Origin: Firmicutes bacterium HGW-Firmicutes-21
GTDB taxonomy: Bacteria > Bacillota > Clostridia > Oscillospirales > CAG-382
Reading direction: 5' to 3'
NCBI GenBank assembly: GCA_002841455.1
Contig: PGZT01000008.1
Location: 1-33,165, forward strand
Length of the DNA stretch: 33,165 nucleotides
A program made the translations under genes and the position numbers. The notes beneath the pieces are model-generated. The model saw only the letters and a list, made by a program, of their open reading frames with translations, had not been told where the DNA came from and did not search any database. Positions 2,120-30,911 of the stretch are shown here, piece after piece; position 1 is the first letter of the stretch, and every line of letters begins with the position of its first letter.

Positions 2120-3409
2120 TTGTCTGCTGAGGGAGTAAAAAACATAATTTGGGGTATGCCGACGGTATTTCTTATCCTTGTCATAGGAATATATTTTACA
2201 TTTCGCAGCGGCTGGTTCCCTATTGTCGGAATAAAGGAAATAACAAAACGCACACTCGGCTCGCTGAAAAAATCGAACGAAAAAGACGGCGACACAAAAA
2301 CCAAGGGCGGAGTTACCCCCTTTATGGCTGTTGCCACCGCTATCGGCGGAACCGTCGGAGTGGGTAGTATAGTCGGTGTCGGTTACGCAATCGCCACAGG
2401 CGGAGCGGGCAGTATTTTCTGGATGTGGGTTAGCGGCTTTTTCGGAATGATGATAAAATATGCCGAGGTTGCGATTGCGGTTAATCATCGCAAAAAAACC
2501 GAAAAAGGCTTTGCAGGCGGAGCTATGTACTGTCTTTCTTCCTTCGGCTATAAGAAGTTAGGCGTTCTGTTCTGCTTTCTCTGTATATTTGCTTCATTTG
2601 GGGTAGGTAACCTTGCTCAGACCAACGCAGTATCGTTAATTCTTGACGACATCGGCGTTTCTCCCATTATAACCGCAGCCCTGCTCTCCTTTTTCTTTTC
2701 GCTCATTATTTTCGGCGGACAACAAAAAATCGCTAAAATAAGCTCGGTTGTCGTCCCCCTCGTATCCCTTGTTTACCTTTCCTGCTCGCTTTACATAATA
2801 CTGCTCTTTCTTCCGCAGATACCAGCCGCATTCGGTAACATTTTCGGCGAAGCGTTTGGTTTTACAGCGGCTGTGGGCGGGTTTTCCGGTGCTTTAATCT
2901 CACGGGCGATACGGGTCGGCTTCGCAAGAGGGGTGTTCTCAAACGAGGCGGGAATGGGTTCCTCCCCAATTGCACATGCCGCCGCCGAGGACGCAACTCC
3001 GCACACGCAGGGCATGTGGGGGATAACCGAGATATTTATAGACACCTTCGTCGTTTCCACCATAACGGGGCTTATCCTTCTCTGTGCGGGGACAACCGAG
3101 GTTGGCGAGCTGTTTCATCACTGCTTCGGTTATTACGGCAGACCGCTGCTTGCGGTGCTTCTGACCGTGTTCGCCTTTGCATCAATGATAAGCTGGTGCT
3201 TTTACAGCGAGGGCTGTATTATATTCCTGTCCAAAAAGAAGGTGTATTTATCCCTTTACCGTGTTATCGCCGTTTTCGCAGCTTTTGCGGGCGCACTTGT
3301 TTCGGTTACGGTGATATGGGATATGGCTGATATTCTGAACGGGCTGATGATTTTCCCCAACCTGTTCTTATTGTTTATAAGACGGCACGAAATAACAAAA
3401 AGAGGTTAA
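2120..3409 (+). CDS. Sodium:alanine symporter (AGCS) family protein
   Basis: Multi-pass membrane protein with GGTVGVGSIVGVGYAIATGGAGSIFWMW and ARGVFSNEAGMGSSPIAHAAA, characteristic of AGCS. TTG start. Confidence 0.87.
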   Translation: MSAEGVKNIIWGMPTVFLILVIGIYFTFRSGWFPIVGIKEITKRTLGSLKKSNEKDGDTKTKGGVTPFMAVATAIGGTVGVGSIVGVGYAIATGGAGSIFWMWVSGFFGMMIKYAEVAIAVNHRKKTEKGFAGGAMYCLSSFGYKKLGVLFCFLCIFASFGVGNLAQTNAVSLILDDIGVSPIITAALLSFFFSLIIFGGQQKIAKISSVVVPLVSLVYLSCSLYIILLFLPQIPAAFGNIFGEAFGFTAAVGGFSGALISRAIRVGFARGVFSNEAGMGSSPIAHAAAEDATPHTQGMWGITEIFIDTFVVSTITGLILLCAGTTEVGELFHHCFGYYGRPLLAVLLTVFAFASMISWCFYSEGCIIFLSKKKVYLSLYRVIAVFAAFAGALVSVTVIWDMADILNGLMIFPNLFLLFIRRHEITKRG

Positions 3410-3414
3410 ATTCC

Positions 3415-3484
3415 GAAGGATAAATCTTTCAGATACGGTTTTATGCCTAACCGCAGGAGGTGCGGTTATCCGGTCTACACCGGA
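3415..3484 (+). ncRNA. Structured leader/repeat element, copy A (three consecutive hairpins)
   Basis: GAAGGATAAATCTTTC (3415-3430), TAACCGCA-GGAGG-TGCGGTTA (3448-3468), TCCGGT-CTAC-ACCGGA (3469-3484). Homologous to the reverse complement of 30822-30894, with compensatory changes in the stems. Ends ~20 nt before the P-type ATPase start. Confidence 0.6.
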
Positions 3485-3503
3485 GAAAGGACTGTTCATA
3501 TAT

Positions 3504-6011
3504 ATGTGGCATTCGAAAACAACGGCGTTTATATGTGATAAGCTTAACACCTCAAAGGAGGGTTTAAGCTCGGCAGAGGCATCTGCACGGTTAAACGCAA
3601 ACGGAAAAAATCTGTTGGAGCATAAGAAAAAGAAGAGCGTGGTAACTCGTTTCTTTATTGCAATGACAGACAAAATGACGGTCATTCTGCTGATAGCGGC
3701 GGCTGTTTCCTTCGCCGCTTCCGCAATAAGCGGAGAGAAGAATGCCGATCCATTAATAATCTTGATGATAGTGGTATTAAACGCCGCTATAGGCGTTTTT
3801 CAAGAGAGTAAAGCGGAAAAGGCTCTTGAGGCGCTCCGCTCGCTATCCTCTCCCGAGACAACCGTTGTCAGGGATAAAAGAGCGGTTAAAATAAAAAGCG
3901 AGGATATTGCGATAGGGGATTTTGTTTTATTGGAGAAGGGCTGCTTTGTCCCTGCCGATATAAGGCTGACAGACTCAAATGAGCTTATTATCGACGAATC
4001 TGCTCTTACCGGGGAATCTCTGGGAGTGAATAAGCAGGCGGATATTTTGTTCCCCGAAAAAACACATATAACCGATATACACAATATGGCTTGGTCGGGA
4101 ACGGCAATTGTAGGCGGCAGAGGGAGCGGCATTGCGGTTGCAACGGGAATGAACACCTATGTCGGCAGTATCGCAAAAATGCTGGACGGGGACAGCGGGC
4201 AGAAAACACCGCTTCAGCAGCGGTTATCCAAGGTAAGCGGTGTGCTGGGAAATGCCGCACTTATAATATGCGCGGTTATTTTTATACTGTCCATTATAGA
4301 AGGTCTGCCCGCAAGCGAGATGTTCCTGACCTCGGTCAGTCTCTCGGTGGCTGCGATACCCGAAGGGTTGCCCGCTATTGTAACCATAGTGCTGTCTATC
4401 GGAGTGCAGATGATGGCAAGGCAGAAGGCAGTGGTAAAGCGGCTGCCGGCCGTGGAGACCTTGGGCTGTGCGAGTGTAATCTGCTCCGACAAGACCGGAA
4501 CCCTTACGCAGAACAAAATGACGGTCACAGAGGTGTTCGGAGACGCAAAAAAGCTCTCTCTTCCCTTTATATTATGCAATAATTTCTCCTCACCGACCGA
4601 AACCGCTCTATTGGATTATGCAAAAATGTTTGTTCCCGATACAGATGCGATAATCACAAAATTCGAGCGGATAAACGAAATACCGTTTGACTCCAAAAAG
4701 AAGCTGATGGTAACCACCCATAAATACGGCAGCCGTTTCGTAATCTACATAAAAGGAGCGCCCGATGTATTACTTCCGCTCTGCCGAGGCGGTAAAGGTG
4801 CGGCGGAACGAGCGGTATCCGATATGGCGGGCAGGGCGCTTAGGGTAATGGCGTTTGCAAGGGCGGAGAGTGCTTTGCCCCCCGCAGACCCGTTTGAAGC
4901 AAGTTATGAGCTGGTCGGTCTCTGCGGTATGCTGGACCCTCCCCGTCCGGAGGTGTATGAGGCGGTTGCGGTTTGCAAAAGAGCAGGTATCCGCCCTGTT
5001 ATGATAACAGGCGATCATCTCGACACTGCTATCGCAATCGGAAAAAGCATAGGTATTTATAACGACGGCGACGAGTGTCATACGGAAAAGGAGCTTGAAC
5101 ACTTAGACAAGCGTCAGCTTGCTGAAGCGGTAACCAAATGTAGTATTTTTGCACGAACCACTCCCGAATTCAAGGTGAAAATCGTTGAGGCGTATCAGCA
5201 AAACGGTATGGTTGTTGCAATGACGGGCGACGGAGTGAACGACGCACCCGCACTTAAAAAAGCGGATATAGGTTGCGCCATGGGCATAAGCGGAACCGAT
5301 GTCGCAAAGCAGGCTGCCGACCTGATACTTACCGACGACAATTTTTCTACCATTATCGAGGCTGTAAGGCAGGGCAGAGGTATTTATTCCAATATAAAAA
5401 AGGCTGTGCATTTTCTGCTCTCTTGCAATATCGGTGAGATAATAACGGTTTTCGCAGCTATTCTTTTGGGGCTTCCCTCTCCGCTGACGGCAATACAACT
5501 GCTCTGGGTAAACCTTGTGACCGACAGCCTGCCCGCAATATCACTCGGCTTGGAGAAAACCGAACGGGATGTAATGAAGCAGAAACCGATAAAAAAGGGG
5601 GAATCGTTATTTTCCGGAGGTATGGTTCTCGAAATGGCCGCCGGTGGTATTTTAATAGGAGTCCTGTCCCTTATCGCCTACATAATCGGCATAAGGCTGG
5701 GAGGTCAATCGCTGGGCAGGACAATGTGCTTTCTGGTTCTGTCGATTTCGCAGCTGTTTCATTCCTTTAATCTGCACAGCAGAAGATCGCTGTTCAAGTC
5801 AAGTATTTTGAGCAACCCCTTTTTAGTGCTTTCCTTCTTCGTCTGCCTTTCCCTTCAGCTTGCGGTGGTTTTAATTCCGTTACTCTCCGGACTCTTCGGA
5901 ACGGTGATGATGAACGGTCGTGAATGGGCGATTGTTTTCCTGCTGGCGGTTGTTCCCCTTGCCGCATCCGAAATTTACAAATCGTTAATTAAGTTTTGCA
6001 GTAATAATTAA
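3504..6011 (+). CDS. Cation-translocating P-type ATPase (Ca2+-transporting type)
   Basis: SDKTGTLTQNKM phosphorylation site, TGES, PEGLPA, TGDGVNDAPALKKADIG, cation ATPase C-terminal region. Confidence 0.93.
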   Translation: MWHSKTTAFICDKLNTSKEGLSSAEASARLNANGKNLLEHKKKKSVVTRFFIAMTDKMTVILLIAAAVSFAASAISGEKNADPLIILMIVVLNAAIGVFQESKAEKALEALRSLSSPETTVVRDKRAVKIKSEDIAIGDFVLLEKGCFVPADIRLTDSNELIIDESALTGESLGVNKQADILFPEKTHITDIHNMAWSGTAIVGGRGSGIAVATGMNTYVGSIAKMLDGDSGQKTPLQQRLSKVSGVLGNAALIICAVIFILSIIEGLPASEMFLTSVSLSVAAIPEGLPAIVTIVLSIGVQMMARQKAVVKRLPAVETLGCASVICSDKTGTLTQNKMTVTEVFGDAKKLSLPFILCNNFSSPTETALLDYAKMFVPDTDAIITKFERINEIPFDSKKKLMVTTHKYGSRFVIYIKGAPDVLLPLCRGGKGAAERAVSDMAGRALRVMAFARAESALPPADPFEASYELVGLCGMLDPPRPEVYEAVAVCKRAGIRPVMITGDHLDTAIAIGKSIGIYNDGDECHTEKELEHLDKRQLAEAVTKCSIFARTTPEFKVKIVEAYQQNGMVVAMTGDGVNDAPALKKADIGCAMGISGTDVAKQAADLILTDDNFSTIIEAVRQGRGIYSNIKKAVHFLLSCNIGEIITVFAAILLGLPSPLTAIQLLWVNLVTDSLPAISLGLEKTERDVMKQKPIKKGESLFSGGMVLEMAAGGILIGVLSLIAYIIGIRLGGQSLGRTMCFLVLSISQLFHSFNLHSRRSLFKSSILSNPFLVLSFFVCLSLQLAVVLIPLLSGLFGTVMMNGREWAIVFLLAVVPLAASEIYKSLIKFCSNN

Positions 6012-29825: not shown

Positions 29826-29924
29826 ATGAATCGTTTCAAAAAGCTGCTCTATTTAATCACCCCCGCTTTAATTATGTCGGCGGTTCTGTTTATTTACTCA
29901 TTTATTGCAAACCAGTTCTTTTAA
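29826..29924 (+). CDS. Candidate 32-aa single-TM microprotein
   Basis: MNRFKKLLYLITPALIMSAVLFIYSFIANQFF preceded by ACGGAGGGATTTAGT (SD). Its 3' end overlaps the convergent DNA glycosylase stop region. Confidence 0.5.
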   Translation: MNRFKKLLYLITPALIMSAVLFIYSFIANQFF

Positions 29925-30755
29925 TATATTCCGCTCGTAATAAAACAGATATTGCTGGGCAATTCCTGCATTTTTCCCAAAGTAATCGGAAGTAAAATCG
30001 GCTCCGTAATGCCTCTCGATAACCCGTTTTACCCATACATCCTTGGGAAACGCCTCATAAAACCCAAAGGCAAACAGCAGCACACAGTCTGCGACCTTAT
30101 CGCCCACTCCCTTTATCTCTGTCAGCTTGTCCTTTGCCGACGGGTAATCAAGCTTGCATATGCTGTCTAAATCAACTATACCGCTCGCAACCTTTTCGGC
30201 GGCATCAACTATGTATTTTGCTCTGAATCCGCTTTTTATAGGTGCAAGCCCTTCTATGCCTGCCGCAGCGACCCTTTCGGCAGGCGGAAAAGAATATACA
30301 CCCTCACAAATCTGTTCACCAAGCAAGGCGCAGAGTGAACCGATTATTTTTTTTATTCTCGGGATATTATTGTTTTGCGAAATAATAAACGAGCAGAGAG
30401 TCTCCCAGCTGTCCTGCCTTAAAATGCGTATGCCTGCGGTTCTCTCGGCAGCTGTTCTGATTCTGCAATCAAAGGACAGCTCCTTTAAAATACAGGCATA
30501 ATCTCTTTCAAGGTCAAAGTACCGCTCCCATTTCTCCTTAAATTCTTCATATGAAACATCGAATAGGGTTATTACATCGGCTTCCTGCTTCAATAACAGC
30601 TCCCTGCCGAATGCAACCCCGCGAAAAAATCCACCGTCCTCCTTTTGAAAACGGAAGCATTGACCGCATTCAAAGGTCTGCTCAAGGTCAAAATTATCGC
30701 ACGAGCTTAATATTATATTATTGTTTTCCGAAATAATTCTCATATTTATGACCAT
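29898..30755 (-). CDS. 8-oxoguanine DNA glycosylase / HhH-GPD family (OGG1-type)
   Basis: FDLEQTFECGQCFRF, SFIISQNNNIPRIKKII, GFRAKYIVDAA, LTEIKGVGDKVADCVLLFAFGFYEAFPKDVWVKRVIE (HhH-GPD with catalytic K/D). Confidence 0.92.
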   Translation of the reverse strand: MVINMRIISENNNIILSSCDNFDLEQTFECGQCFRFQKEDGGFFRGVAFGRELLLKQEADVITLFDVSYEEFKEKWERYFDLERDYACILKELSFDCRIRTAAERTAGIRILRQDSWETLCSFIISQNNNIPRIKKIIGSLCALLGEQICEGVYSFPPAERVAAAGIEGLAPIKSGFRAKYIVDAAEKVASGIVDLDSICKLDYPSAKDKLTEIKGVGDKVADCVLLFAFGFYEAFPKDVWVKRVIERHYGADFTSDYFGKNAGIAQQYLFYYERNILKELVCNK

Positions 30756-30782: not shown

Positions 30783-30894
30783 TGAAACGCACCTAAAGGC
30801 TGCGTTTCACGATTGTGCCGCTTTGTATGTAATACAAATGGCTGCACCTCTTGCAGCCAAGGCACAAAACCGTATTTGAAAGATTTATCTTTCA
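30783..30894 (-). ncRNA. Structured leader/repeat element, copy B (core 30822-30894, plus extra closing stem and downstream hairpin)
   Basis: On the minus strand: TGAAAGAT-AA-ATCTTTCA; TGGCTGCA-AGAGG-TGCAGCCA; TTTGTAT-TAC-ATACAAA; TTGTGCC/GGCACAA closing hairpins 2 and 3; then TGAAACGCA-n9-TGCGTTTCA. Homologous to 3415-3484. Confidence 0.6.
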
Positions 30895-30911
30895 GACTTA
30901 TATACCTGTGC

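What the first reader, a model, noticed from the sequence alone, without database searches (positions are those of the whole stretch)
3415..3484. Three-hairpin element (copy A) between the AGCS symporter and the P-type ATPase, paralogous to an element 27 kb away
A 33-nt block (gaaggataaatctttcagatacggttttatgcc) matches 30 of 33 positions in the reverse complement of 30862-30894. The hairpins that follow differ in sequence but keep their pairing. Hairpin 2 is TAACCGCA/TGCGGTTA here and TGGCTGCA/TGCAGCCA in copy B, with three compensatory pair changes and a conserved RGAGG loop. Hairpin 3 is TCCGGT-CTAC-ACCGGA here and TTTGTAT-TAC-ATACAAA there, almost completely covaried with a TAC loop. Hairpin 1 changes only A-U to G.U. 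This points to selection on RNA structure. Both copies are sense-oriented and lie upstream of a start codon. I do not recognise it as a named riboswitch. It may be a new cis-regulatory RNA or a dispersed structured repeat.
Basis: partly seen in the sequence, partly recalled or inferred. Interest (0 to 1): 0.75.

Follow-up and report, generated by a model that had tools for sequence, protein, structure and literature searches.

The report
Mini insertion elements landing at start codons
The repeated three-hairpin sequence is a tiny mobile DNA element, related to IS110-family jumping genes, that inserts exactly between a gene's ribosome-binding site and its start codon and brings a replacement ribosome-binding site, so the gene it lands on can stay readable.

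Summary
Copies A and B are 2 of about 40 dispersed copies in this genome. Covariation is very strong, but G-U and A-C intermediates are equally common (80 vs 78 cells), so nothing points to selection on the sense RNA.

Copies lie sense to genes, after a native Shine-Dalgarno (SD) and usually 2 nt before the start codon, whatever the gene's function. The empty site of copy A in a same-genus genome is AAGAGGTTAA^TATATG: insertion falls between SD and ATG, without target duplication, and the element supplies its own SD.

Two same-genus genomes and most relatives lack it. Both ends and the landing site match complete IS110-family insertion sequences (Clostridium, Enterococcus, Lactococcus, one relative of this order), one with its own empty site (AAGGAGATAA^ATTATG).

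Best reading: miniature non-autonomous relatives of an IS110 lineage whose target is the SD-start gap. IS900 is a known precedent for the target; I found no description of such miniatures. Who moves them, and whether a bridge RNA reads the SD, is inferred.

The parts
2120..3409 (+). Sodium:alanine symporter (AGCS) gene; its stop TAA (3407-3409) lies in the SD-to-ATG spacer of the next gene
   Evidence: PF01235, E 1.4e-104
3400..3405 (+). Native SD (AAGAGG) of the P-type ATPase gene, now cut off from its start codon by copy A
   Evidence: Empty site AAGAGGTTAATATATGTGG in same-genus G001
3410..3500 (+). Copy A, whole inserted element (91 nt; boundaries +/-1 nt because of a 1-nt overlap)
   Evidence: Comparison with the empty site; model R1 match 3412-3495, 49 bits
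3415..3430 (+). Copy A hairpin 1, the left-end palindrome GAAGGAT-AA-ATCTTTC
   Evidence: its sequence is conserved across genomes
3448..3468 (+). Copy A hairpin 2
3469..3484 (+). Copy A hairpin 3; the closing strand of the outer stem that should follow is missing
3484..3491 (+). SD carried by copy A (AGAAAGGA), 12 nt before the ATPase start codon at 3504
   Evidence: Sequence
3504..6011 (+). P-type cation ATPase gene downstream of copy A
   Evidence: PF00689, PF00122
30746..30897 (-). Copy B, whole element with the complete three-way junction
   Evidence: model R1 match 30807-30896, 94.6 bits
30878..30893 (-). Copy B hairpin 1
30861..30867 (-). Copy B outer stem, 5' strand TTGTGCC
30839..30859 (-). 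Copy B hairpin 2
30822..30838 (-). Copy B hairpin 3
30813..30819 (-). Copy B outer stem, 3' strand GGCACAA
30746..30755 (-). Copy B right end ATGGTCATAA; its ATG is in frame with the gene start at 30743
29898..30755 (-). 8-oxoguanine DNA glycosylase gene downstream of copy B (start at 30755 or 30743)
   Evidence: PF07934, PF00730

Best explanation
The finding is a miniature, non-autonomous insertion element of an IS110-family lineage. Shown: it sits between the SD and the start codon of genes in sense orientation, it is absent from the same sites in same-genus genomes, it leaves no target duplication, its right end carries a new SD (and often an ATG), and both its ends and its landing position are those of complete IS110-family insertion sequences in other Firmicutes. 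Inferred: an IS110-type recombinase acting in trans moves it, with a bridge RNA (seekRNA) whose donor guides read the conserved ends and whose target guide mimics an SD. This would explain why only the ends keep their sequence, why orientation is fixed (an SD is directional), why any gene is a target, and why tandem arrays form (each inserted copy offers a new SD-AA-NN-ATG target). The stems between the ends are kept as DNA palindromes or by a strand-symmetric process rather than as a sense-strand RNA.
For: About 40 copies in the genome, none detected in two same-genus genomes and patchy in the order: 12 of 397 genomes with the hairpin-1 motif. Position: 72 of 82 distinct copies have a start codon 0-5 nt after the right end, 57 of them at exactly 2 nt; 62 of 82 have an SD match of 4 or more bases upstream of the left end, against 20% of random positions. 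Empty site for copy A; at lepA-hemW the element's own ATG replaces the old start in frame. IS110-family elements with the same ends and site: G049 right end GAAAGGAATGGTCATAA before ATATG/GTATG and left end AAGGTTGAAAC after SD-like flanks; C. tagluense, E. faecalis, E. raffinosus and L. lactis with SD-AAG(N)TTGAAA at one end and GTGCCTTGAGCG..GCGAAAGGAATG..ATAA-ATG at the other; empty site of the C. tagluense IS: AAGGAGATAAATTATG. A roughly 330-nt derivative with both ends and no transposase gene in Lactococcus petauri. Precedent for the target: IS900.
Against: No IS110-family gene was found in most element-carrying genomes, the window's own included: 3 of 14 searched genomes have one, and those of G023 and G061 are not flanked by the shared ends; multicopy ISs are often lost from draft assemblies, but that is an excuse, not evidence. 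The shared ends are short. The guide-to-flank match of the SD mimic was not significant in my shuffle test (82 vs mean 76.7; 182 of 2000 shuffles as high). The strong conservation of the three-way junction is not explained by this model.
Confidence: 0.78

Rival explanations
1. A structured cis-regulatory RNA (riboswitch or leader) controlling the translation of a regulon.
For: Strong covariation; always sense and just before start codons; carries the SD.
Against: Downstream genes are unrelated (ATPase, glycosylase; by resemblance recF, hemW, uppS, addA, tlyA); absent from the same operons in same-genus species; G-U not above A-C; stem and loop sequences differ between genomes; mini copies lack the junction altogether.
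Confidence: 0.08
2. A mobile repeat moved by another enzyme, such as a Y1 (HUH, RAYT-like) transposase, whose ends resemble the IS110 ends by convergence on SD-ATG or because an IS110 was captured inside a copy in G049.
For: The own genome has one Y1 gene and no detected IS110; a conserved end palindrome and lack of target duplication also fit single-strand transposition.
Against: No element copies flank the Y1 gene. Four independent plasmid IS110 lineages show the same two ends and site, which capture in G049 cannot explain, and the C. tagluense IS has a clean empty site.
Confidence: 0.11
3. A translated leader (TTG start after the native SD, MKDKSF...) acting as an attenuator or re-initiation device.
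For: A TTG lies at normal SD spacing in most copies; IS900 is reported to use host signals for its hed ORF (title cited in PMC8141618).
Against: The reading frame is not kept: hairpin-1 loop lengths vary by one base, and stops fall at different places in different copies.
Confidence: 0.03

Closest known systems
IS110-family insertion sequences guided by bridge RNA / seekRNA (PMC11208160, PMC11187229)
   Same: Both ends and the insertion position match members of the family found here; no target duplication beyond the core; fixed orientation
   Different: The window element has no transposase gene and is about 90-150 nt; movement by an IS110 enzyme is not shown
IS900 of Mycobacterium avium subsp. 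paratuberculosis (Doran 1997, cited in PMC8141618)
   Same: IS110-family element reported to target translation initiation signals
   Different: Full-size IS reported to use the host signals for its own hed ORF; here a miniature element that re-supplies an SD to the host gene. I read the title and a summary, not the 1997 paper
Prokaryotic MITEs and dispersed repeats (BOX, ERIC, REP/BIME, RPE)
   Same: Short, non-coding, multicopy, hairpin-rich, modular, tandem or solo, patchy distribution
   Different: No terminal inverted repeats or target duplication; strictly sense; one precise position, the SD-start gap. A 2024 review of prokaryotic MITEs (PMC10969869) does not mention IS110

Membership tests
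Non-autonomous derivative (MITE in the broad sense) of an IS110-family lineage | Multicopy, dispersed, no transposase gene of its own | tested here: met
   About 40 copies of about 90-150 nt in the genome
Non-autonomous derivative (MITE in the broad sense) of an IS110-family lineage | Both ends match those of autonomous members | tested here: met
   AAG(N)TTGAAA and GAAAGGAATG..ATAA shared with G049 and the plasmid ISs; short motifs
Non-autonomous derivative (MITE in the broad sense) of an IS110-family lineage | Same target site as autonomous members | tested here: met
   SD-AA^NN-ATG for both, with empty sites for both
Non-autonomous derivative (MITE in the broad sense) of an IS110-family lineage | Autonomous partner of the same lineage in the same genome | tested here: not met
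   No IS110 gene found in G000 and most carriers; assemblies are drafts
Non-autonomous derivative (MITE in the broad sense) of an IS110-family lineage | Mobilised in trans by the IS110 recombinase and its RNA | not testable with these tools
   Needs a transposition assay
Classical MITE | Terminal inverted repeats and target-site duplication | tested here: not met
   Copy A empty site shows no duplication; left and right ends are not inverted repeats of each other (consensus)
Cis-regulatory RNA / riboswitch | Match to a described Rfam family | tested here: not met
Cis-regulatory RNA / riboswitch | Functionally coherent downstream genes and conservation at orthologous sites | tested here: not met
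Cis-regulatory RNA / riboswitch | Excess of G-U over A-C at pairs on the functional strand | tested here: not met
   80 vs 78 cells, 38 vs 29 pair types; no positive control was run
IS200/IS605 (Y1) derived repeat (REP, PATE) | Copies flanking or adjoining a Y1 transposase gene | tested here: not met
   Only one Y1 gene in the genome, no element copies beside it

The most novel reading that the evidence does not exclude
An IS110 lineage in Firmicutes has a bridge RNA whose target guide is itself an SD mimic, so that nearly every gene start is a landing pad, and it has spawned families of 40-150 nt satellites that keep only the ends read by the donor guides, re-supply an SD, and thereby rewrite 5' UTRs and sometimes N-termini (hemW, tlyA) without killing the gene.
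Probability: 0.5. Interest if true: 0.75.

Novelty: new variant of a known kind. Interest (0 to 1): 0.62.

Why it matters
It explains a strongly covarying intergenic structure that would otherwise enter the pipeline as a candidate riboswitch, and it warns that covariation plus an upstream-of-start position does not prove a regulatory RNA. It suggests that RNA-guided IS110 systems can evolve a near-universal, gene-tolerant target, the SD-start gap, with small mobile cassettes that swap ribosome-binding sites across bacterial operons and phages. Such elements can change translation of essential genes and can mislead start-codon annotation.

Tried and rejected
Rfam: nothing for the element. Conserved short ORF through the element: open in some copies, frame not kept. 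Y1/RAYT partner: one gene, no element copies next to it. Possible long version at G023:C19: only a mini copy plus an unrelated end 2.6 kb away. IS110s of G023 and G061: not flanked by the shared ends. Formal SD-guide match test: not significant. Bridge-RNA consensus fold on five regions: weak energy; the G049 region was lost from that alignment through a script error. Literature: no IS110-derived miniature element found; only IS900 for the target.

Full report
What is there. The 33-nt block and the three hairpins are present as described, with copy B at 30893-30861 on the minus strand. The block is one of 27 pattern hits in the 1.55-Mb draft genome (0 for the reversed control), and a covariance model built from 19 full copies finds about 40. 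The full consensus is RTTTGAAAGATAAATCTTTCAAAY - CGGTTTTGTGCC [hairpin 2] [hairpin 3] CGGCACAATTCCCG - variable - AGAAAGGAATGGTCATAA - NN - ATG. Hairpins 2 and 3 are enclosed by the TTGTGCC/GGCACAA stem; copy A has lost its 3' strand.

Structure. On 19 own-genome copies 90.6% of cells pair, and 14 of 34 pairs have changes on both sides (0 of 500 shuffles; slid controls 35-47% paired). With 75 matches from about nine genomes, 30 of 34 pairs have such changes (that alignment is fitted to the model). Non-Watson-Crick cells are 80 G-U and 78 A-C. A sense RNA should favour G-U, its antisense A-C; neither is favoured. Pairing is therefore conserved without regard to strand, as for DNA palindromes or arm-to-arm correction. 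No positive control was run for this test.

Position. In 32 own-genome copies the element is sense to its neighbours, usually begins within about 20 nt of the stop of a co-directional gene, and precedes the next gene's start. Among 82 distinct copies from several genomes, 72 have a start codon 0-5 nt after the right end, 57 of them at exactly 2 nt; 62 have an SD match upstream of the left end, against 20% of random positions; and AA is nearly fixed at the left junction. These copies were picked by their two conserved ends, so the counts describe well-preserved copies. Phage contigs carry it in the same way. Tandem arrays (C3, C36, C39, C82) follow naturally if each inserted copy offers a fresh SD-AA-NN-ATG target.

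Mobility. Two genomes of the same genus have no copies. At the copy A locus one of them (G001) reads AAGAGGTTAATATATGTGG, where the window reads AAGAGGTTAA-[91 nt]-TATATGTGG: an insertion between SD and ATG without target duplication (1-nt overlap). At lepA-hemW the old hemW start is split and the element's own ATGGTCATAA opens the gene in frame; at dxs-tlyA a truncated copy replaces the first codons of tlyA (gene names by sequence resemblance). The hairpin-1 motif occurs in 12 of 397 genomes of the order, in scattered families, and in named Clostridia MAGs.

Link to IS110. The exact right end recurs at seven contig ends of G049. Behind it lies an IS110-family transposase gene on the opposite strand, and the other ends of that repeat all read AAGGTTGAAAC, several of them after SD-like flanks. 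Its plasmid relatives in C. tagluense (63% identity), E. faecalis, E. raffinosus and L. lactis have the same left end after an SD, and a right end with GTGCCTTGAGCG..GCGAAAGGAATG..ATAA placed 0-2 nt before ATG/GTG. A second C. tagluense plasmid has the empty site AAGGAGATAAATTATG. The motif GTTTTGTGCC(TT) inside the right end is shared with the window elements. A roughly 330-nt derivative with both ends and no transposase gene occurs in Lactococcus petauri.

Mechanism. IS110 recombinases use a non-coding RNA that pairs with target and donor (PMC11208160, PMC11187229). In the plasmid ISs the non-coding region holds a conserved CACGGGGAGGTGAGTAAG, an SD mimic inside a putative target loop, and a CTTTTCAAGC resembling the IS end. 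This fits SD-guided insertion, but my guide-versus-flank test was not significant, so it is inference. IS900, also IS110 family, was reported to target translation initiation signals (Doran 1997, cited in PMC8141618). The weak point is the absence of a detectable IS110 gene in most carriers, for which draft assembly is a possible but untested excuse.

Verdict. A new variant of a known kind: miniature relatives of an IS110 lineage that lands in the SD-start gap. It works like a gene-tolerant mobile cassette; that an IS110 recombinase moves it is likely but unproven.

Noticed in passing
G000:C35:2953-3204 (L058): A Y1 (RAYT-like) transposase gene whose reading frame contains a different hairpin repeat, GTAGGGCAGGGGCTCTGCTCCTGCCGC and a near-inverse copy; possibly its own REP.
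   Followed up: partly
G000:C90:6650-6750: A truncated copy is fused into tlyA, so that the predicted N-terminus of the protein appears to come from the element (TTG start inside hairpin 2).
   Followed up: partly
L228, L232, L253 (G253, G074): Variants of the element carry an extra hairpin (GCTTTCGC..GCGAAAG) between the SD-like AAAGGA and the ATGGT(A/C)ATAA end, so the SD and the start codon are separated by a stem.
   Followed up: no
L206, L207, L208, L299-L302 (IMG/VR contigs): Viral contigs carry the element before genes including two apparent serine recombinases and apparent tail or connector genes (by eye); L208 is nearly the same sequence as contig QKJV01000098 (L129) binned as Desulfobulbaceae, which may be a misbinned phage or prophage.
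   Followed up: partly
L131:5435-5507: A Gut-1 RNA (RF01706) next to tRNA genes in Clostridiales bacterium DTU089.
   Followed up: no
L129:1409-1489: A pemK cis-regulatory RNA (RF02913) on the same contig as two copies of the element.
   Followed up: no
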